The notes under the pieces were generated by a model. That model was not told the origin of the DNA and searched no databases. It worked only from the letters and a program-made list of their open reading frames with translations. Of a stretch of 64,000 bases of DNA, positions 40,647 to 50,340 are shown piece by piece. Numbering within the stretch: the stretch's first letter is position 1; every line of letters starts with the position of its first letter. The translations under genes were made by a program, and so were the position numbers. Origin of the DNA: JBDRCC01 sp043822065 [NCBI: archaeon] (lineage in GTDB: Archaea > Undinarchaeota > CAZHTU01); assembly GCA_043822065.1 (NCBI GenBank), contig JBDRCC010000020.1, positions 80,598 through 144,597 of the forward strand, given 5' to 3'.

Positions 40647-41195
40647 ATGGATAATAGAATAATTACTGTCAAAGAGGCTATGACGCCCGAGGTTAAGACG
40701 GTCAGCCCTTCTGACAGCCTTGAAAAAATATCGAAGTTTATGGTTGACCACCACATCGGCTGTGTTGTTGTTTCAGATAAAAAGCCGGTTGGGATAGTAA
40801 CCGAGGCAGACGTAGTAATGGCTGTTTCGCAGGGGATGGACCCAAAGAAGCTGAAGGCCCAGGAGATAATGACCTCGCCGGTTATTTCTGTTAATCCACA
40901 CGAAGATGTCATAGAGGTTTCGAAGAAGCTCTCAAAATACAACATACGCAGGATTCCAGTTATGGACGGGGACAAGCTTTTGGGGATAGTGACCTCCCAC
41001 GACCTGCTCAGGGTTGCGTCCGAAGAGGAAGCCATCCTGTCGGAGATTGTCGACGTCCGCCTTGGCCACATTTTCGGCTCAAAGAAGCACAGGTACTTCA
41101 CAGGCAGGTGCGAGGTCTGCACCGAATATTCTGACTTCCTGAGGGAAATAAACGGCAAGCTTGTCTGCCAAGAATGCGTTGATTCCGAAGCATGA
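40647..41195 (+). CDS. Two-CBS-domain protein with C-terminal zinc ribbon (CBS operon gene 1)
   Basis: The protein has 182 residues. Two CBS domains form one Bateman module: VKEAMTPEVKTVSPSD...GIVTEADVV, then AQEIMTSPVISVNPHE...GIVTSHDLL. A linker leads to a four-Cys zinc knuckle at the C-terminus (Cys155, Cys158, Cys174, Cys177). CBS modules bind adenine nucleotides or SAM and act as sensors; the zinc knuckle may bind nucleic acid or protein. No catalytic domain is present. It overlaps the next gene by 4 bases and starts an operon of five CBS proteins. Confidence 0.88.
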   Translation: MDNRIITVKEAMTPEVKTVSPSDSLEKISKFMVDHHIGCVVVSDKKPVGIVTEADVVMAVSQGMDPKKLKAQEIMTSPVISVNPHEDVIEVSKKLSKYNIRRIPVMDGDKLLGIVTSHDLLRVASEEEAILSEIVDVRLGHIFGSKKHRYFTGRCEVCTEYSDFLREINGKLVCQECVDSEA

Positions 41196-41920
41196 TACTA
41201 AAAGACATACTGGTTAAGCCAGTCACAATCGACTGTGCACAGTTAGCGACGAAGGCGCGCGCCATCCTCAAGAAAAAAAAGGCTAATTACCTGATTGCCA
41301 CTGAAAAAGGGAGGCCTTCAGGGATAATCGACCTCAAGCACGTCATCCGGCTGAAGGACAAAAAGTCAAACCTCCTCTGCAAGAGCCTGGCTGAGCCGGT
41401 AAGGGCGATATTCTCGCCTGACCTGCCGCTGCTTGATGCCGCAAAGCTCCTGCTCACATCAAAGTCAGAAGTTGGGATTGTCCTTGAAGCCGGGAAAATG
41501 CGCGGCGTTGTCGACTACCCTGCTCTGCTTGATGGCTTTATAAAAGCAAGATACGCTCCGAAAAAAATGGCAGTCTCCGACCTAAAGCCTTCGATGCTTT
41601 CAATCAGCTCAAAGTCCTCAGTCAGTGCGGCGCTGAAGCTGCTGTCTGATGCGCCGGCTGTTGCAGTCCTCCAAGGCAGCAAGGTAGTAGGCGTTGTCTC
41701 AAGGCACGACTTCCTCCGCCACAGCGAAATGCGGCAGGGCGGCAGGCACATTAGCGGGGCTACAAATTCCCCTGCCGTAACCGTGGTGCCGGGCTCAACG
41801 GTAGCCGGTGCGGCAAAGATGATGGTGTCGAAAGGGCTTTCCCTTCTCCCTGTGGTCGAAGGGGATTCATTCGCAGGATCAATTACGGCTGCAGACCTCG
41901 TGTCTGCTTACGTGGGGTGA
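41192..41920 (+). CDS. Four-CBS-domain protein, divergent (CBS operon gene 2)
   Basis: The protein has 242 residues and can be read as four CBS repeats, the first two weakly conserved (ATEKGRPSGIIDLKHVI; LEAGKMRGVVDYPALL), the last two clearer (LQGSKVVGVVSRHDFLR; VEGDSFAGSITAADLV). The whole chain is CBS domain, with no membrane or catalytic part. It overlaps gene 1 by 4 bases and lies 3 bases before gene 3. Ligand unknown. The weak first pair may be structural only. Confidence 0.8.
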   Translation: MILKDILVKPVTIDCAQLATKARAILKKKKANYLIATEKGRPSGIIDLKHVIRLKDKKSNLLCKSLAEPVRAIFSPDLPLLDAAKLLLTSKSEVGIVLEAGKMRGVVDYPALLDGFIKARYAPKKMAVSDLKPSMLSISSKSSVSAALKLLSDAPAVAVLQGSKVVGVVSRHDFLRHSEMRQGGRHISGATNSPAVTVVPGSTVAGAAKMMVSKGLSLLPVVEGDSFAGSITAADLVSAYVG

Positions 41921-41923
41921 AAC

Positions 41924-42808
41924 ATGCAAAACAGGATACGGGATTCGTTAAGGAAAACATTCAACAGAAGGATTTCTGACTACGGCCCGGTTGACTTCGG
42001 CACGCACAGAGCAGAGAAGCCCTCGCAGATACTCCCAATCGCCTCAAAGAAGGTCGTCAGCGTTACCAAGACCACCCCGATAAAAAAGGCAACCCAGGTG
42101 ATGGCTGAGATGGGCGTTAGGAGAATACCCGTCGTGGACCCGGGGACAAACCGGCTTGTCGGCATATTCACGTCCACTGACGTAATGGACTTTTTGGGCG
42201 GAGGGCAGAAATCGAAGCTTGCCGACAACATAAGCAAGGCGCTGAACTATCCAGTCGGCCGCCTCATGGAGGAAAAGGTAAGAACACTCTCCGAGAGCTC
42301 AACAATTACTGATGCGGTTGATACATTCCTCTCCGTCGGCGTAGGGGGCGTTCCGGTAGTCGGCAAAAAAGGCGAGCTTATCGCAGTTCTGACAATACGC
42401 GACTTAATGCACCTTATCGCTGGCAGGGATACCGGCGTAAAAGTGCGCGACGTCATGTCCAAGCCAGTGGTCGCAAGCCCCAACATGGGGGTCACAGACG
42501 TCACAAAGGTCATGGTCCGGAACAACTACTTCCGGCTCCCAGTTGTGGAGAATGACACCGTTGTCGGGATGATAACTTCCATGGACCTTGTAAGGGCGGT
42601 TGCGAGCTCGGAGATATTCAGCCCGAGCATTCTGGTCAAGGACGTCATGACAAAGAAGGTCACGGCAACTAGGCCTGAAACAGACATAGGGCAGATAGCC
42701 CAGATAACGTACGAGCGCGGAACCGGGGCATTCCCAGTGATATCCCAAAACAAGCTCGTAGGCATAATAACCGAGTACGACGTAATGCGGGGTGCATTTA
42801 AAAAATGA
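41924..42808 (+). CDS. Four-CBS-domain protein with basic N-terminus (CBS operon gene 3)
   Basis: The protein has 294 residues. An N-terminal segment of about 35 residues is rich in Arg and aromatic residues (IRDSLRKTFNRRISDYGPVD). Four CBS domains follow, with repeats RRIPVVDPGTNRLVGIFTST, GGVPVVGKKGELIAVLTIRD, FRLPVVENDTVVGMITSMD and GAFPVISQNKLVGIITEYD. VRDVMSKPV and VKDVMTKKV open the third and fourth. GGGGTG lies just before the ATG. The N-terminal segment might bind a partner or nucleic acid; that is a guess. It overlaps gene 4 by 4 bases. Confidence 0.88.
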   Translation: MQNRIRDSLRKTFNRRISDYGPVDFGTHRAEKPSQILPIASKKVVSVTKTTPIKKATQVMAEMGVRRIPVVDPGTNRLVGIFTSTDVMDFLGGGQKSKLADNISKALNYPVGRLMEEKVRTLSESSTITDAVDTFLSVGVGGVPVVGKKGELIAVLTIRDLMHLIAGRDTGVKVRDVMSKPVVASPNMGVTDVTKVMVRNNYFRLPVVENDTVVGMITSMDLVRAVASSEIFSPSILVKDVMTKKVTATRPETDIGQIAQITYERGTGAFPVISQNKLVGIITEYDVMRGAFKK

Positions 42809-43560
42809 TAGCCAAGGACTACCTAGAGCAGACCTTCTCCGTAGAGGCGAACGACACACTCTCCCATGTAAAGAAAATGATGCTGCGGCACAAGTCCACT
42901 TTTGCCCTCGTCTTTGACAACGGGGCGTTCTCAGGGCTCATAACTGCCAAGAGCATGCTCCAGAAAAACAAGACAGGCGCAAAATGGAAGCGGCGCAACG
43001 TCGAGCTTCTCCTTGCGAGAAACGCAACCCTGCCAAACGTCCCAGTTATAACTCCGGACTACTCCGCTGCGAATGTCGCAAAGCTTCTGGTGCGGGATTC
43101 GCTTCCAGCGGTTCCAGTCAGCGACGGCAAAAAAATAATAGGCGTCGTCACAAGGTACTCACTCCTTGAGCACTTCAACAAGAATTACAAGAACGCGTAC
43201 AAGGTCTCAGACCTCATGCACAAGGACATAGTCACCGTCAACAAAATGCACTCGGTAAAGCATGCGCACCAGCTCCTCTTCAAGAGGGACCTGACCAAGA
43301 TTGTGGTAGAAGATGAGCGGATGCCAATTGGCGTCGTTACGGACCGGGACCTGCTGTTCAAGTCCGAGGACGGCGCGCAGGTAAAGGACATCATGTCCAA
43401 GGGCGTCTATACTGTGAAGCCGACCGATGACGCAGCCGCAGCAGGCGCGCTGATGCTGAAATACCGGGTTTCAAGCCTTCCAGTGGTGGGGGCGGCCCTA
43501 ATGGGCGTGCTTACCCGCTCAGACCTAATAAAGAAGATCAAGGAGCCGCAGGGCAGATAG
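42805..43560 (+). CDS. Four-CBS-domain protein (CBS operon gene 4)
   Basis: The protein has 251 residues, four CBS repeats: FALVFDNGAFSGLITAKSML, PAVPVSDGKKIIGVVTRYSL, TKIVVEDERMPIGVVTDRDL and SSLPVVGAALMGVLTRSDL. It has no other domain. Residues VSDLMHKDIVTV and VKDIMSKGVYTV open the last two. It overlaps gene 3 by 4 bases; gene 5 begins 12 bases after the stop. Confidence 0.87.
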   Translation: MIAKDYLEQTFSVEANDTLSHVKKMMLRHKSTFALVFDNGAFSGLITAKSMLQKNKTGAKWKRRNVELLLARNATLPNVPVITPDYSAANVAKLLVRDSLPAVPVSDGKKIIGVVTRYSLLEHFNKNYKNAYKVSDLMHKDIVTVNKMHSVKHAHQLLFKRDLTKIVVEDERMPIGVVTDRDLLFKSEDGAQVKDIMSKGVYTVKPTDDAAAAGALMLKYRVSSLPVVGAALMGVLTRSDLIKKIKEPQGR

Positions 43561-43572
43561 GATGGAGGAAAA

Positions 43573-44343
43573 ATGAAGATATCAAGCATTATGCAAAAAG
43601 ACGTTACGACGATTGACAAGGACGAGACGGTCCACAACGCCATCTCAAAAATGTCAAAGGCATCCGTTTCCAAGCTTCCGGTCTTGAACAACGGGAAACT
43701 AGTTGGCATAGTCACCTATTCCGACCTGCTAAAGGTCCTTGGCTCGTCAAGGCAGCAGGCAGTGCCGACCCACATTCACGTCAGCAATGCGATGCAGCGT
43801 GACGTCAAAATTGCGAGTGAGGATCACGAGCTTTCCCATGCCGCCAGCCTTATGGTCACCTACGGCATATCCTCGCTTCCGGTCATGCGCGGCGACTCCA
43901 TAGTCGGCATAGTGACAAAGACTGACCTCGTTGGAACTTTCACGGACAAGGCCGCCAAGGTAAAAAGTTTGATGATCCATCCGGTAACGATCTCTCCGAC
44001 CGACCGGATAGTGCATGCGCGCGAGATAATGTTCAAAAAGGGCATCTCAATGCTGCCTGTTGTCGACGATGGGGAAGTTCTCGGGACAATAAATGAGGGG
44101 CACATAGCTGAGACGCTGGACGTCTTCAGGCGGAAAACAGAAAAGCACCAGGCGAAGCGCGTTGCAGAGATACTCGTTGAGGACATCATGTCCAGGGAAA
44201 TCCCGTCAACTACCCAAGATACCTCGGTCGTCGACGCAATAAAAGCCATGAAGCAAAAGGGGACGACATCGCTTCTCGTCATGGACAAAGGCAAAGTAGT
44301 GGGCGTCTTTTCTAAGACAGATATACTCCCTCTTCTGAGGTAA
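43573..44343 (+). CDS. Four-CBS-domain protein (CBS operon gene 5)
   Basis: The protein has 256 residues, four well-conserved CBS repeats: SKLPVLNNGKLVGIVTYSDL, SSLPVMRGDSIVGIVTKTDL, SMLPVVDDGEVLGTINEGHI and TSLLVMDKGKVVGVFSKTDI. GGAGG 4 bases before the ATG is a strong ribosome-binding site. It is the last gene of the CBS operon; the small DUF167 gene follows after 22 bases. Confidence 0.88.
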   Translation: MKISSIMQKDVTTIDKDETVHNAISKMSKASVSKLPVLNNGKLVGIVTYSDLLKVLGSSRQQAVPTHIHVSNAMQRDVKIASEDHELSHAASLMVTYGISSLPVMRGDSIVGIVTKTDLVGTFTDKAAKVKSLMIHPVTISPTDRIVHAREIMFKKGISMLPVVDDGEVLGTINEGHIAETLDVFRRKTEKHQAKRVAEILVEDIMSREIPSTTQDTSVVDAIKAMKQKGTTSLLVMDKGKVVGVFSKTDILPLLR

Positions 44344-46526: not shown

Positions 46527-47147
46527 ATGGGAATTGCCAGGCTCGCAAGTGACCTGCGGAAGCTTCCAATAGCGCAGGAGGTGGCTGACAGGGTATCCGA
46601 GTTCCGGCTTCTTGGAAAGAAGGGCAGCCAGGCGTGGTTCTCCGAGCTTAGCTTCTGCGTCCTGACTGCAAACGCGACCGCCCAGAAGGGGATTGAGCTC
46701 CAGGAAAAAATTGGGCACGGCTTTCTTACCCTGGTAGAAACGCAGCTCCAGGCAAAGCTGAAGTGCCACGGCTACCGCTTCCACACCAGGGCGGGCTTCA
46801 TCGTATACAACCGCAGGTTCTCTAACCTCAAGGACATCATACTCCGGTTCCGGACGTCTGCCGAAGCCCGCGAATGGCTTGCCAAAAACGTAATGGGCGT
46901 AGGCTACAAGGAGGCGAGCCACTTCCTCAGGAACGTCGGCTTCATGGACGTTGCCATCCTCGACAGGCACATATTAAATGTCATGAAGGAGTACGGCGTC
47001 ATAATGGAAATTCCGAAGGCGCTGACGCCAAAAAAATACCTCGAGATTGAAAAAGCCCTTCTCCCGCTCTCAAGAACAACCAAGCTGTCCCTGGGGGAGC
47101 TCGACCTCTACCTTTGGTACATGAAAACCAGCAAGGTGCTGAAATAG
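46527..47147 (+). CDS. Archaeal 8-oxoguanine DNA glycosylase/AP lyase (Ogg2 type)
   Basis: The protein has 206 residues of the HhH-GPD superfamily. The catalytic lysine is Lys128 in VMGVGYKEASHFLRNVG, and the catalytic Asp is Asp146 in VAILDRHIL. The N-terminal helices include FSELSFCVLTANATAQ. It removes 8-oxoguanine and cuts the resulting abasic site. Monocistronic; CTAAAAAA at 46497-46504 lies 23-30 bases upstream. Confidence 0.92.
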   Translation: MGIARLASDLRKLPIAQEVADRVSEFRLLGKKGSQAWFSELSFCVLTANATAQKGIELQEKIGHGFLTLVETQLQAKLKCHGYRFHTRAGFIVYNRRFSNLKDIILRFRTSAEAREWLAKNVMGVGYKEASHFLRNVGFMDVAILDRHILNVMKEYGVIMEIPKALTPKKYLEIEKALLPLSRTTKLSLGELDLYLWYMKTSKVLK

Positions 47148-47179: not shown

Positions 47180-48322
47180 CTAAAGTACGAAGTTGAAGAC
47201 GTATCCGAGCAAAAGTATCTGCGGCACGGTTATTACAGGCAGCCAAAGCGCCGTCCTCCTTCCAATGTTCGACCACAGCACGCCTATTTCGGTGTAATCA
47301 GTTGCAACGCCCGCCATGAGGAAGACAAAGCTGTTTCCGAATGCCCCAGTCTGCCTGAAAATCTCGAACGCCATTGGCGAGCTGCCCTCTGAGCAAATCT
47401 CAATTACTGTCGCCACCGTAAGAGTCACAAGCATGCCGAGCGCGCTGGCGCCCATGAACCTCATAAAAAAGTGCTCAGGGACGAACGCCCTCGCGGTCGC
47501 AGCGAACATCATCCCGATTATTATCCACCAGACCACCATCCTGGTGAGCGACCAGCAGCCCATCAGGACCCCGCTCAGCATCTCACCGGCCTGCTTTGGC
47601 GACTTCCTGTAGGCCGCCCACCGCCTCCTGACGTCCTTTCTTATGGAAAAGCCGCTCGAAACCTTGACGCTGTTTGGGTTCCTGTCCATTTTTCCAATCC
47701 CATCAAGGGCCTGGTAGGCAAAGCCCGTTATAACGGCTATCACTATCGCTGACGCCACAAGATACAGGGCTTTAAACCCGAAAAAGCCGAACAGGAGGAT
47801 GGTCACTGGCAGGTTTGCCCATGGGCTTGCAAGAAGGAATGCCACCACCGCCGGGACAGATGCTCCCTTTTTGTATAACTGCACGGACAGGGCGAGAATT
47901 CCGTGGCTGCATGCGCTCATCATAAACCCAAGCAGGACGGCATACAGCACCGTGATTCTTTTCGTGCCTGAAAGGTACTTGGATATGTACTCCTTCGGGA
48001 TGAAGTAATCTATTGCCCCGCCCAAGCCGAGCCCGAGCAGTATTGCCCACCAGATTATCCTGAAATAGTCCAGAAACGCCAAGCGCCACGGCATCAGCGG
48101 CTCAACAAAATACGATGCTCCAAGAATGCCTACAGCAACAAGCGAAACGATGTAAACCTTCTCTTTGTACCAAGGGTGGCTCTCTTTTCCGCATGCTATG
48201 CAGATTGAGTGCGGGATTTTGTTCTCTTTCTCGTATTTCCTAAGGCAGCGCTCGCTGCAGAAATACTCACCGTGCATGGGAATTGTCCCGTCCATTCCGC
48301 AGACAGGGCATTTTTTAGCCAT
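47180..48322 (-). CDS. ArsP/DUF318-type permease with N-terminal TRASH-like zinc finger
   Basis: The protein has 380 residues. The first 50 residues hold six Cys (5, 8, 22, 26, 41, 44): CPVCGM...FCSERC is a TRASH/MYM-like metal knuckle and CIACG a further pair. An eight- to nine-helix permease follows, with GFMMSACSHGILALSVQLYK and VAFLLASPWANLPVT, matching COG0701 permeases; relatives include organoarsenical transporters. It is the last gene of an operon with superoxide reductase and rubrerythrin. The soluble metal-binding head suggests metal sensing or transfer, but the substrate is unknown. Confidence 0.82.
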   Translation of the reverse strand: MAKKCPVCGMDGTIPMHGEYFCSERCLRKYEKENKIPHSICIACGKESHPWYKEKVYIVSLVAVGILGASYFVEPLMPWRLAFLDYFRIIWWAILLGLGLGGAIDYFIPKEYISKYLSGTKRITVLYAVLLGFMMSACSHGILALSVQLYKKGASVPAVVAFLLASPWANLPVTILLFGFFGFKALYLVASAIVIAVITGFAYQALDGIGKMDRNPNSVKVSSGFSIRKDVRRRWAAYRKSPKQAGEMLSGVLMGCWSLTRMVVWWIIIGMMFAATARAFVPEHFFMRFMGASALGMLVTLTVATVIEICSEGSSPMAFEIFRQTGAFGNSFVFLMAGVATDYTEIGVLWSNIGRRTALWLPVITVPQILLLGYVFNFVL

Positions 48323-48327
48323 GCCTG

Positions 48328-48663
48328 CTAGAACACGTCCACGCTATATATTGCTTCCCACTTTCCGTGGATGTTGCAGCTTTCCCTCGCAGCAAGGCTG
48401 CCTGATTTTGAAAGCTTTATCCTAAAAACCGCTTCCGCTACTGTGTCTGGAGGGACCTTGAAGCCCTTTTTGGCTATCTCCTTTCCCCCGAACCAGAGCG
48501 AGACCCACTCTATATGGTGCGCCCCTTCCATAGGGTGCGGGACGCTCCCGACATTCACCCTCACTTCAAACTCCTTTCCGGCTGAAATCCTCTTAGGCAG
48601 TTCTGCTACCGGCAGGTGCTTTTCGTTTCCAGGCGCTTCCTTGTGCTTATATTCTGAGTCCAT
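48328..48663 (-). CDS. Superoxide reductase (one-iron, neelaredoxin-like)
   Basis: It reduces superoxide to peroxide without making oxygen. The protein has 111 residues. The iron ligands are all visible: His16 in NEKHLPVAEL, His43 and His49 in VPHPMEGAHHIEW, and Cys96 and His99 in SCNIHGKWE. Glu14 and Lys15 next to His16 are as in active enzymes. It lacks the N-terminal desulforedoxin domain of two-iron desulfoferrodoxin, but that domain is encoded as its own gene 8 bases upstream. GGTGG precedes the ATG. Confidence 0.93.
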   Translation of the reverse strand: MDSEYKHKEAPGNEKHLPVAELPKRISAGKEFEVRVNVGSVPHPMEGAHHIEWVSLWFGGKEIAKKGFKVPPDTVAEAVFRIKLSKSGSLAARESCNIHGKWEAIYSVDVF

Positions 48664-48671
48664 TTTTCCAC

Positions 48672-48785
48672 CTACTGCAGGGTCATGTCCTGGCCGCAGC
48701 AGACCAGAGTACCGGCTCCAGCCCCGACAACCTTGACCTTGTTCCCGCAGATTTCACACAGGTATGTCTGTCCAATCTTAGTCAT
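48672..48785 (-). CDS. Desulforedoxin-like 37-residue protein (detached N-terminal domain of desulfoferrodoxin)
   Basis: ATG 48785 to TAG 48672-48674, with GGGGG 6 bases before the ATG. The product is 37 residues. LCEICGNKVKVVGAG and LVCCGQDM give the desulforedoxin pattern C-x2-C...C-C with Cys10, Cys13, Cys29 and Cys30, which holds one iron in a distorted tetrahedral site. In desulfoferrodoxin this domain is fused to superoxide reductase; here the two are neighbouring genes. It probably donates electrons to the reductase. Confidence 0.85.
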   Translation of the reverse strand: MTKIGQTYLCEICGNKVKVVGAGAGTLVCCGQDMTLQ

Positions 48786-48793
48786 TTTTCCCC

Positions 48794-48904
48794 CTATTCA
48801 CAGTTGCACTCCAATCCCGTTTCATCGCATTTGCACAGATCCTTTCCGCAGTTCGGCATGTCGCACTTCTCACTATCTTCCTTCTTTTTCTTTTTCCAAA
48901 ACAT
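48794..48904 (-). CDS. Cysteine-rich microprotein of 36 residues
   Basis: ATG 48904, stop 48794-48796. The product starts MFWKKKKKEDSEK and continues with six Cys (14, 19, 24, 26, 33, 35) in CDMPNCGKDLCKC and ECNCE. The Cys density suggests a metal-binding peptide of metallothionein type. It starts 1 base after the stop of the 33-residue gene, inside a seven-gene operon for oxidative stress, so it is very likely expressed. No known family recognised. Confidence 0.65.
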   Translation of the reverse strand: MFWKKKKKEDSEKCDMPNCGKDLCKCDETGLECNCE

Positions 48905-48905
48905 C

Positions 48906-49007
48906 TTATCCGCAGCAGCCGCACCTGCAGTCGCAATCCACCATCTTCTTGCCGCAGCACATGGCAGACGTCCTAGAATGCTTTCCGCATTTTTTGCAGT
49001 GGTACAT
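48906..49007 (-). CDS. Cysteine-rich microprotein of 33 residues with desulforedoxin-like knuckles
   Basis: ATG 49007, stop TAA 48906-48908. It has nine Cys in 33 residues. The first part, YHCKKCGK...MCCGKKM, repeats the desulforedoxin spacing (C-x2-C-G and C-C-G-x2-M). The last nine residues, CDCRCGCCG, are a dense metal clasp. It may be a shortened desulforedoxin paralogue with a metal-storage tail; that is inference. It lies 12 bases after the EncFtn-like gene stop and 1 base before the 36-residue gene. Confidence 0.62.
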   Translation of the reverse strand: MYHCKKCGKHSRTSAMCCGKKMVDCDCRCGCCG

Positions 49008-49019
49008 GCTCTTTGCTCC

Positions 49020-49241
49020 TCAATCGTGCTCTTCGAACACCTTATTCTGGACTTCGTCGCTCTTCCTGAGGTACTCCACGAGCATCGCCACATGCTCCTT
49101 CTCCTCGTTCATGTTGTGGGTCAGGACTTTTTTCAACTCCTCATCATGGGTCGTGTCTATCCGCCCCTGGTACTTGTTTATCGCGTCCAGCTCTTCAATC
49201 AGTGACTGCCTTGCAAAATTCAAATCCATCGAACTTACCAT
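49020..49241 (-). CDS. EncFtn-like (encapsulated-ferritin family) protein
   Basis: The start at 49241 lies 1 base after the rubrerythrin stop, with GGAGG just upstream; the product has 73 residues (49229 is an alternative ATG). IEELDAINKYQGRIDTTHDE and NMNEEKEHVAMLVEYLRK match the two-helix encapsulated ferritin family, with the Glu of the first helix and the E-x2-H of the second as iron ligands. EncFtn proteins form decamers that oxidise iron and are usually packed in encapsulin shells. No encapsulin gene is in this window, and the C-terminus lacks an obvious cargo peptide. Confidence 0.8.
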   Translation of the reverse strand: MVSSMDLNFARQSLIEELDAINKYQGRIDTTHDEELKKVLTHNMNEEKEHVAMLVEYLRKSDEVQNKVFEEHD

Positions 49242-49242
49242 T

Positions 49243-49746
49243 TTAACCTCCAAAGACCATGAATTTCGAACCATCGGTGCCGCACAGCGGGCACCTGCCC
49301 GGCCTTGACTCGTGTGTATACCCACATACCGGGCATACATAAAACTCTTTCTGCCGGATGTCCCCTCCTGACTCAAATGTTTCTAGGGCTTTCCTGAAAA
49401 GGCCCTCATGTATCTTCTCAACCTCGTTTGCCCAGTTGAAGGTCTTCCAGGCATCGTCGTTTTTTTCCTCTTTTGCATTCTTCATGAATTCAGGGTACAT
49501 CTTCTGGTGCTCGTAGGCTTCACCCTCAATCGCCTTTTTGAGGTTCTCTTTTGTATCCTTAACACCGTTCATTATGCCAAGGTGGTTGTGCGCGTGCACA
49601 GTCTCCGCCTCGGCAATTGCCCGGAACATGTTAGCGATATTCTTTTTGCCGTCCTTCTCCGCCCTCTTTGCAAAGGCAAGATACGCCCTGTTTGCCTGGC
49701 TCTCGCCGGCGAAGGCGGCCTTCAAATTTTCATCAGTTTTCCCCAT
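49243..49746 (-). CDS. Rubrerythrin
   Basis: It reduces hydrogen peroxide with a di-iron centre. The protein has 167 residues. The ferritin-like domain has AFAGESQANRAYLAFA, EAETVHAHNH, GEAYEH and ANEVEKIHEGLF, supplying the Glu and His ligands. The C-terminal rubredoxin domain has Cys138, Cys141, Cys152 and Cys155. GGAGGGG lies 2 bases before the ATG, an unusually strong ribosome-binding site for this window. It is the first gene of the seven-gene operon running to 47180. Confidence 0.95.
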   Translation of the reverse strand: MGKTDENLKAAFAGESQANRAYLAFAKRAEKDGKKNIANMFRAIAEAETVHAHNHLGIMNGVKDTKENLKKAIEGEAYEHQKMYPEFMKNAKEEKNDDAWKTFNWANEVEKIHEGLFRKALETFESGGDIRQKEFYVCPVCGYTHESRPGRCPLCGTDGSKFMVFGG

Positions 49747-49787
49747 GTCCCCTCCAAAACCTTATAAGCAATACTAATTTTAGCTCA

Positions 49788-49813
49788 CTTATAACTATTC
49801 TGTTCTAGGAGGT
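49788..49813 (+). promoter_or_regulatory. TATA-like element and Shine-Dalgarno sequence of the reverse rubrerythrin gene
   Basis: CTTATAAC at 49788-49795 lies at -31 to -24 of ATG 49819. AGGAGGT at 49807-49813 is an ideal Shine-Dalgarno sequence 5 bases before that ATG. Both being present is uncommon here; if the transcript starts about 25 bases after the TATA element, the Shine-Dalgarno would be at its very 5' end. Confidence 0.45.
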
Positions 49814-49818
49814 ATATC

Positions 49819-50340
49819 ATGATGCAAGTGTTCCGGTGCAAGATATGCGGAGACCCATACATAGGCGAGGCGGCACCGACCCACTGCCCGTTCTGCGGCG
49901 CGCCAAAAAAATACATAATCCTTGCGAAGGACTACGTTGAACCGATTATAAAGAGTATGTCCGAGGCTTCACGGAAGAACCTCGAAGCGGCGGTAAAGCT
50001 CGAAGCGAGCAACTCCGCGTTCTATAAATGCGCCTCAACCAAGGCGCTGGCGAAGAAGGACCAAATCGGGTACGCAATGTTCAAGGCGCTTTCGAAAGTC
50101 GAAGCTGAGCATGCAATAACCCTGGCAAAGGCGCTCGGCGCCCCGCGCCCGGAAATGGGCGAGGAAAGCTGCTCTGCAGAGTTCCCAGAGAACGTTGCCA
50201 GCGCCAAGCAGAGGGAGGCGCGCGCAACCAAGCACTACGGCGAGTTCCTTGCCGCAGCCACTGAGCCAAGGCTGAAGGAAATCTTCGGTGCACTAATCGA
50301 GGTGGAGAAGACCCACGCGGAGTTGCTAAACTCAATATGA
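49819..50340 (+). CDS. Reverse-type rubrerythrin (N-terminal rubredoxin domain, ferritin-like domain)
   Basis: The protein has 173 residues. The rubredoxin knuckles are at the N-terminus (Cys7, Cys10, Cys23, Cys26), the reverse of classical rubrerythrin. The ferritin-like four-helix part contains AAVKLEASNSAFYKCA, LSKVEAEHAI, REARATKHYGEF and LIEVEKTHAELL, which carry the Glu/His iron ligands. It probably reduces peroxide. It is divergent from the rubrerythrin operon and overlaps the peptidase gene by 4 bases. Confidence 0.88.
   Translation: MMQVFRCKICGDPYIGEAAPTHCPFCGAPKKYIILAKDYVEPIIKSMSEASRKNLEAAVKLEASNSAFYKCASTKALAKKDQIGYAMFKALSKVEAEHAITLAKALGAPRPEMGEESCSAEFPENVASAKQREARATKHYGEFLAAATEPRLKEIFGALIEVEKTHAELLNSI

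What the first reader, a model, noticed from the sequence alone, without database searches (positions are those of the whole stretch)
47180..50340. Oxidative-stress and metal operon with two cysteine-rich microproteins
Seen: minus-strand order rubrerythrin, EncFtn-like, 33-residue protein (9 Cys), 36-residue protein (6 Cys), desulforedoxin, superoxide reductase, TRASH permease, with gaps of 1-12 bases. A reverse-type rubrerythrin is divergent. The 33-residue protein keeps the desulforedoxin knuckle spacing and adds CDCRCGCCG. Inference: a complete superoxide-to-peroxide-to-water pathway with iron buffering, in which the microproteins hold or deliver metal. Genes this small are usually missed.
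Basis: partly seen in the sequence, partly recalled or inferred. Interest (0 to 1): 0.65.

Follow-up and report, generated by a model that had tools for sequence, protein, structure and literature searches.

The report
Archaeal oxygen-defence operon with microproteins
An uncultured archaeon carries a compact set of genes for removing superoxide and peroxide and handling iron, with one probable and one possible tiny cysteine-rich protein inside it; the enzymes are ordinary, while the tiny proteins have no relatives in the genomes searched and their job is unknown.

Summary
The seven ORFs lie as stated, with gaps of 1, 12, 1, 8, 8 and 5 bases. Rubrerythrin, EncFtn-like, desulforedoxin (Dx), superoxide reductase (SOR) and ArsP-type permease match profiles. 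A rubrerythrin-type match lies within 3 kb of SOR in 26 of 55 related loci (25 clear): an ordinary setting. Two things are unusual. (1) Dx and SOR are separate intact genes; of those 55 loci, 46 carry them fused, 8 have SOR alone, 1 is interrupted. (2) The 33-residue ORF is probably real: gene-like codon usage, Shine-Dalgarno-like site, and the only one of 197 ATG ORFs of 25-60 residues with 16% Cys or more. It is an orphan: no orthologue in 389 and 150 overlapping genomes, Pfam, NCBIfam or PDB. It is not a desulforedoxin by motif (CX2CX9CC, not CX2CX15CC). The 36-residue ORF fills its gap but has codon usage below all 247 operon fragments; translation is doubtful. Best reading: an oxygen-stress and metal operon whose 33-mer binds metal; buffering versus electron transfer stays open. 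Side find: an unnamed Cys-tail microprotein family upstream of ArsP permeases in 5 of 7 genomes.

The parts
49243..49746 (-). Rubrerythrin, 167 aa, C-terminal rubredoxin-like domain
   Evidence: PF02915 3.1e-25, PF21349 3e-8; NCBIfam rubrerythrin and nigerythrin matched below their curated cut-offs
49020..49241 (-). EncFtn-like ferritin-like protein, 73 aa, ends ...FEEHD
   Evidence: PF22277 7.7e-23; PDB NE0167 1.4e-13 and Rru_A0973 6.5e-12; equivalents of Rru E32, E62, H65 invariant in 19 of 19 homologues
48906..49007 (-). 33-residue microprotein, 9 Cys, CX2CX9CC plus tail CDCRCGCCG; orphan
   Evidence: no Pfam/NCBIfam/PDB match; no orthologue; GGAG 8 bases before ATG (read)
48794..48904 (-). 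36-residue ORF, 6 Cys, Lys-rich start; coding status uncertain
   Evidence: for; codon usage against; no family or orthologue
48672..48785 (-). Stand-alone desulforedoxin, 37 aa, CX2CX15CC
   Evidence: PF06397 1.2e-16, TIGR00319 above cut-off; desulforedoxin structure 1cfw 5.7e-10
48328..48663 (-). 1Fe superoxide reductase (neelaredoxin type), 111 aa, separate from Dx
   Evidence: PF01880 1.4e-26, TIGR00332 above cut-off; PDB 4brj 2e-16; EKH-x26-H-x5-H-x46-C-x2-H read in the sequence, within the motif quoted
47180..48322 (-). ArsP-type permease, 380 aa, with N-terminal Cys-rich (TRASH-like) segment
   Evidence: PF03773 1.1e-32; treble-clef PF09889 5e-4, below its cut-off; SO_0444 Cu/Zn efflux model 126 bits of 300 needed; 'TRASH' comes from no call
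49747..49818 (.). 72-base divergent intergenic region with a TTATAAG...CTTATAA pair, possibly two divergent promoters
   Evidence: read by eye; inference
49819..50340 (+). Reverse rubrerythrin, 173 aa, rubredoxin-like domain first
   Evidence: PF21349 at 5-32 and PF02915 at 53-171
46527..47147 (+). N-glycosylase/DNA lyase, convergent neighbour of the operon
   Evidence: NF002305 242 bits, cut-off 183; homologue within 3 kb of SOR in 20 of 55 loci

Best explanation
This is an oxygen-stress and metal-handling operon of an uncultured archaeon. SOR reduces superoxide to peroxide, rubrerythrin and the divergent reverse rubrerythrin reduce peroxide to water, EncFtn-like oxidises ferrous iron that would otherwise feed Fenton chemistry, and the ArsP-type permease with its Cys-rich N-terminus exports a thiophilic metal. 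Desulforedoxin is encoded apart from SOR and so can act as a soluble FeS4 carrier. The 33-mer is a translated, lineage-specific microprotein whose CX2C...CC set and Cys tail bind a soft metal (Fe, Zn or Cu), most likely as a small metal buffer or carrier in the same stress. Shown here: gene order, families, ligand residues, gene-like codon usage of the 33-mer. Inferred: co-transcription, metal binding, metal identity, direction of transport, and translation of the 36-mer.
For: Gene order and short gaps; families; ligand residues kept. Within 3 kb of SOR in 55 loci: rubrerythrin-type match 26 (25 clear), DNA lyase 20, EncFtn-like 11 (10 clear), ArsP 4. EncFtn-like overlaps or abuts the start of SOR in L073-L078 and L093. 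A close permease homologue lies on the same strand as SOR in G405. 33-mer codon usage and Cys content. Other Cys-rich small ORFs lie beside ArsP or SOR: L083, L199, L200, L206.
Against: No orthologue of the 33-mer: 20 of 389 and 5 of 150 genomes gave weak matches (E 0.0025-0.09). 14 of the first 20 were scanned for the motif without a hit, 11 were read, and no 33-mer-like motif occurs in all 225 fetched loci, 1.14 Mb. The 36-mer: 18 of 389 weak matches, 13 read, none an orthologue. Structure prediction of the 33-mer is uninformative (pLDDT 58). 36-mer codon usage is not gene-like. Metal binding is composition only: in Haloferax, 5 of 14 purified C(P)XCG proteins were zinc-free, though the three of these analysed held another metal (PMC11241148, abstract).
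Confidence: 0.5

Rival explanations
1. The 33-mer is an electron carrier, not a buffer: a shortened desulforedoxin-like FeS4 protein that, with the stand-alone desulforedoxin, passes electrons to SOR and the rubrerythrins in place of rubredoxin.
For: Dx split from SOR; the 33-mer shares MYxCxxCG-like and CCGxxM-like ends with Dx, 36% identity in the alignment.
Against: Loop of 9 instead of 15 fails the CX2CX15CC motif (PMC3116461 and PMC11980386 passages); five extra Cys have no evident use in an FeS4 carrier; no match to Dx or rubredoxin profiles.
Confidence: 0.2
2. The operon is chiefly a thiophilic-metal (Cu, Zn, Cd or organo-arsenical) export unit with oxidative-stress genes attached; the small Cys proteins hand metal to the permease, as guessed for the Cys-tail microproteins found upstream of other ArsP permeases.
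For: A Cys-tail microprotein abuts an ArsP_1 permease in G145, G403, G402, G204, G033; the permease has a Cys-rich N-terminus; nearest NCBIfam model is SO_0444 Cu/Zn efflux, below cut-off.
Against: The window microproteins are not members of that family (profile scores -13.9 and -8.7 bits), are not next to the permease, and the permease is longer (380 against 300-320 aa); most genes of the operon are iron enzymes.
Confidence: 0.2
3. One or both microprotein ORFs are not genes: the 234-base stretch between EncFtn and Dx is a spacer that happens to be open, or a decayed desulforedoxin duplicate.
For: No orthologues; 36-mer codon usage; any-start ORFs fill such gaps in 4-6% of shuffles.
Against: For the 33-mer: codon usage, SD-like site, 9 Cys all TGC as is usual in window genes (103 TGC to 2 TGT). 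0 of 2,000 shuffles of each gap combine gap filling with the Cys count.
Confidence: 0.15

Closest known systems
Desulforedoxin / desulfoferrodoxin centre I (PF06397)
   Same: The 37-aa gene is a true stand-alone desulforedoxin. The 33-mer shares the CxxCG and CCG knuckles with it.
   Different: The 33-mer has a loop of 9, not 15, and a five-Cys tail; it does not match PF06397.
Dx-SOR (2Fe, class I superoxide reductase)
   Same: Both halves are present, adjacent and in order.
   Different: They are two genes with their own start, stop and SD-like site; 46 of 55 relatives are fused. The SORGOdb passages read list fused Dx-SOR, SOR, HTH and atypical classes, not a two-gene form (PMC3116461).
rbr operon of Clostridioides difficile
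   Same: A section headed 'The rbr operon' treats rubrerythrin and SOR together (heading and one passage seen, PMC11980386).
   Different: Its SOR is the fused 2Fe type (same passage); its other genes were not read.
Encapsulated ferritin (EncFtn)
   Same: Family and ferroxidase residues.
   Different: No C-terminal targeting extension: it ends ...FEEHD, and 12 of 19 homologues likewise end in HD; below the NCBIfam cut-offs.
Haloarchaeal C(P)XCG zinc-finger micro-proteins
   Same: Under 70 aa, Cys-knuckle motifs.
   Different: Nine Cys, Cys-dense tail, different setting; one abstract and listings seen.
SO_0444 / ArsP permeases (PF03773)
   Same: Permease family, above the Pfam cut-off.
   Different: Cys-rich N-terminal segment; below the SO_0444 and SaoE cut-offs.

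Membership tests
Desulforedoxin (for the 33-mer) | CX2CX15CC metal site | tested here: not met
   CX2CX9CC (sequence); definition from passages of PMC3116461 and PMC11980386
Desulforedoxin (for the 33-mer) | match to PF06397 or TIGR00319 | tested here: not met
Desulforedoxin (for the 37-mer) | CX2CX15CC and PF06397 | tested here: met
Superoxide reductase, neelaredoxin type | (E)(K)H(x)19-27H(x)5H(x)40-63C(x)2H, PF01880 | tested here: met
   E14 K15 H16, x26, H43, x5, H49, x46, C96, x2, H99 counted in the sequence; motif; PF01880
EncFtn | ferroxidase residues E32, E62, H65 (Rru numbering) | tested here: met
   alignment; invariant in 19 of 19 homologues
EncFtn | C-terminal targeting peptide and encapsulin partner | tested here: inconclusive
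   no C-terminal extension; encapsulin not searched for, no whole genome held
SO_0444 Cu/Zn efflux transporter | curated NCBIfam cut-off | tested here: not met
   126.3 of 300 bits
ArsP-linked Cys-tail microproteins (alignment A3, defined here) | profile match | tested here: not met
   33-mer -13.9 bits, 36-mer -8.7 bits
[quoted passage not shown]
   33-mer has CKKCG and CGCCG, which fit loosely; definition seen only in the abstract
C(P)XCG zinc-finger micro-proteins | metal binding | not testable with these tools
   needs protein

The most novel reading that the evidence does not exclude
The 33-mer is the first of an undescribed kind of metal-binding microprotein, made by shortening a desulforedoxin and adding a metallothionein-like Cys tail, that loads or protects the iron enzymes of anaerobic oxygen defence; together with the Cys-tail microproteins beside ArsP permeases it would show that archaea of this kind run oxygen and metal stress through a layer of unannotated thiol microproteins.
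Probability: 0.2. Interest if true: 0.6.

Novelty: new variant of a known kind. Interest (0 to 1): 0.35.

Why it matters
The enzymes are textbook. What could matter is that proteins of 30-55 residues, easily missed in annotation, may supply or buffer metal for oxygen defence and metal export in uncultured archaea. The recurring ArsP-linked Cys-tail family makes that testable with synthetic peptides, whereas the window's own 33-mer is so far a single example.

Tried and rejected
Orthologue searches for the 33-mer and 36-mer gave weak matches only; those read lie in larger frames (some look aminoacyl-tRNA synthetase-like or aIF1-like by eye) or in frames that overlap longer ORFs. Plasmid tblastn with the 33-mer: no match. 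Viral contigs with the permease: no relative. PDB with the 33-mer at E up to 10: none. AlphaFold on the 33-mer: pLDDT 58, not used, no fold search made. A frameshift or sequencing error as the cause of the Dx/SOR split was rejected because SOR has its own SD-like site and ATG, and past the Dx stop neither frame continues the relatives' linker (by eye); in L216 the split does look like a frameshift. Membership of either microprotein in the Cys-tail family was rejected.

Papers: in the capped lists, no title or abstract start shown describes a microprotein beside SOR, a two-gene Dx/SOR or ArsP-linked Cys-tail proteins. The two papers holding 'desulforedoxin-like' were checked by passage and speak of centres in larger proteins. 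The library lacks most subscription journals, so this is not proof of absence.

The 40 SOR regions are 24 of the 33 SOR-bearing genomes of the G002 phylum (the 24 whose places were listed) plus 16 lower-scoring places of other genomes, out of 202 genomes with SOR; the high-scoring SORs of other archaea were not fetched for wide neighbourhoods. One search examined 56 loci and dropped one (L217, SOR fragment); 12 of its 55 loci span only about 1.5 kb on each side and many contigs end early, so its neighbour counts are lower bounds. Its limit is E 0.01: one of 11 EncFtn matches (L195) is a different ferritin-like protein and one of 26 rubrerythrin-type matches (L210) is a 48-residue rubredoxin-like ORF; at E below 1e-5 (and 100 aa or more for rubrerythrins) the counts are 10 and 25. 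One search used 19 of 20 fetched EncFtn loci; L174, with a stop in the frame, fell below the limit.
Full report
Observation. Minus-strand order: rubrerythrin, EncFtn-like, 33-mer, 36-mer, desulforedoxin, SOR, ArsP-type permease, gaps 1, 12, 1, 8, 8, 5 bases. Reverse rubrerythrin is divergent across 72 bases. The window is archaeal: GGGP synthase, aRF-1, Alba, aMBF1, archaeal isopentenyl phosphate kinase and DnaG (PRK04031) pass NCBIfam cut-offs. No whole genome is held. By valyl-tRNA synthetase the closest of 20 held genomes tested is G165 at 53% identity, then G240 and G034 at 45%, so no close relative was available.

The known parts. Pfam or NCBIfam recognise every gene except the two microproteins. 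SOR fits the whole ligand motif (E)(K)H(x)19-27H(x)5H(x)40-63C(x)2H quoted in a passage of PMC11980386, with spacings 26, 5, 46 and 2; its best solved relatives are SORs. Desulforedoxin matches solved desulforedoxins. EncFtn-like matches NE0167 and Rru_A0973, and the residues equivalent to Rru E32, E62 and H65 are invariant in 19 of 19 homologues at E below 1e-12; mutating these loses or lowers ferroxidase activity (PMC11202242 passages). The same passages state that EncFtn without a shell oxidises but does not mineralise iron.

Is the setting ordinary? SOR is in 202 of 389 genomes drawn as relatives of a Diapherotrites archaeon. Of 56 fetched SOR loci, 55 gave a SOR match; within 3 kb of it lie a rubrerythrin-type match in 26 (25 clear), the DNA lyase in 20, EncFtn-like in 11 (10 clear), ArsP in 4. 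So the enzyme set is a common neighbourhood. EncFtn-like overlaps or abuts the SOR start in seven genomes (L073-L078, L093). EncFtn-like relatives occur in 72 of 389 genomes at E 1e-5; the closest 13 are 59-80% identical. By eye some of their neighbours look like ZIP, CDF and VIT transporters (these names are recalled, not scanned).

Split desulfoferrodoxin. Of the 55 SOR ORFs, 46 have the Dx motif fused in front, 8 have none, 1 is interrupted. The window has both halves as intact neighbours, each with an SD-like site. The SORGOdb passages read list no two-gene form. A stand-alone Dx-like ORF beside a fused Dx-SOR exists in G274 (L196).

The permease. Close homologues were found in 2 of 87 genomes of the G002 phylum (G031, 52%, two TGA inside; a 36-residue stretch in G021; 9 of 87 have any match at 1e-5) and 3 of 29 of the G165 phylum (G185 61%, G404 55%, G405 in pieces; 10 of 29 have any match at 1e-8). 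In G405 it follows SOR on the same strand after one ORF, in a broken frame; in G031 it lies 1.7 kb from SOR on the other strand. In G185 the contig ends inside the gene, so its upstream genes are unknown; SOR there is on another contig.

The 33-mer. For: codon score 0.274 against a gene-fragment mean of 0.259; 1.5% of out-of-frame fragments reach it; the only one of 197 ATG ORFs of its size class with 16% Cys or more, 3 of 448 if GTG and TTG starts count; filling its gap with 9 Cys in 0 of 2,000 shuffles, though any-start ORFs fill such a gap in 6%; GGAG before the start. Against: no orthologue among 389 and 150 overlapping genomes, none in plasmids, Pfam, NCBIfam or PDB, and no similar motif in 225 fetched loci. 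It resembles Dx (36% in the alignment), but with a loop of 9 instead of 15 it fails the Dx motif.

The 36-mer. It fits the gap, but its codon score of -0.342 is below all 247 overlapping operon fragments and 99.8% of gene fragments, and 47% of out-of-frame fragments reach it; TGT, AGT, TTG and GAT codons drive this, and without TGT it is still -0.218. The codon test is rough on such short genes: the real Dx scores 0.038, reached by 13% of out-of-frame fragments. I see no clear SD site, so it would depend on coupling to the 33-mer. I put its translation at about 0.5-0.6.

A side result. Looking at ArsP neighbours turned up a 33-54-residue family (Lys-rich start, Cys-cluster tail). A three-row profile found it in 6 of 29 genomes of the G165 phylum, two of them rows of that profile; a seven-row profile found it in 1 of 83 of the G002 phylum, itself a row. 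It lies directly upstream of a 300-320-residue PF03773 permease in 5 of the 7 (G145, G403, G402, G204, G033); in G103 a cation ATPase is upstream, and in G274 an ORF without Pfam match. Five of the seven were scanned and match no Pfam or NCBIfam model at E up to 10. The window microproteins are not members. It supports the general idea of thiol microproteins working with such permeases, not the specific claim about the 33-mer.

Verdict. Observation confirmed; interpretation partly supported. The operon is a new variant of a common arrangement. The 33-mer is probably real and probably binds metal, but it is a single example and its function is inferred.

Noticed in passing
L199:3310-3432, L200:4436-4567, L220:1489-1611, L222:1501-1641, L221:653-793, L223:1450-1614, L083:2750-2851: Unnamed family of 33-54-residue proteins with a Cys-cluster tail, directly upstream of an ArsP_1 permease in 5 of 7 genomes; the five scanned match no Pfam or NCBIfam model.
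   Followed up: partly
L157-L168 and window 49020-49241: An EncFtn-like subfamily with a conserved C-terminus F-E/G-x-H-D; 12 of 19 homologues end in HD. Whether these genomes have an encapsulin was not searched.
   Followed up: partly
window 46527-47147 and L072-L111, L193-L216: An N-glycosylase/DNA lyase gene lies within 3 kb of SOR in 20 of 55 loci, suggesting DNA repair travels with superoxide defence.
   Followed up: partly
L206:1280-1357: A Cys-rich ORF of 22-25 residues (MDDKCCGCSSDCC...) sits just downstream of SOR in G403.
   Followed up: no
L216:201-520: Dx and SOR frames are interrupted in G359, probably a frameshift or assembly error.
   Followed up: no
L010 / L072 (G031): The closest G002-phylum homologue of the permease has two TGA codons inside and is followed by a Cys-rich DUF2769 protein (layout, family).
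   Followed up: no
window 40647-44343: Five consecutive plus-strand ORFs that look like CBS-domain proteins (by eye; not scanned).
   Followed up: no
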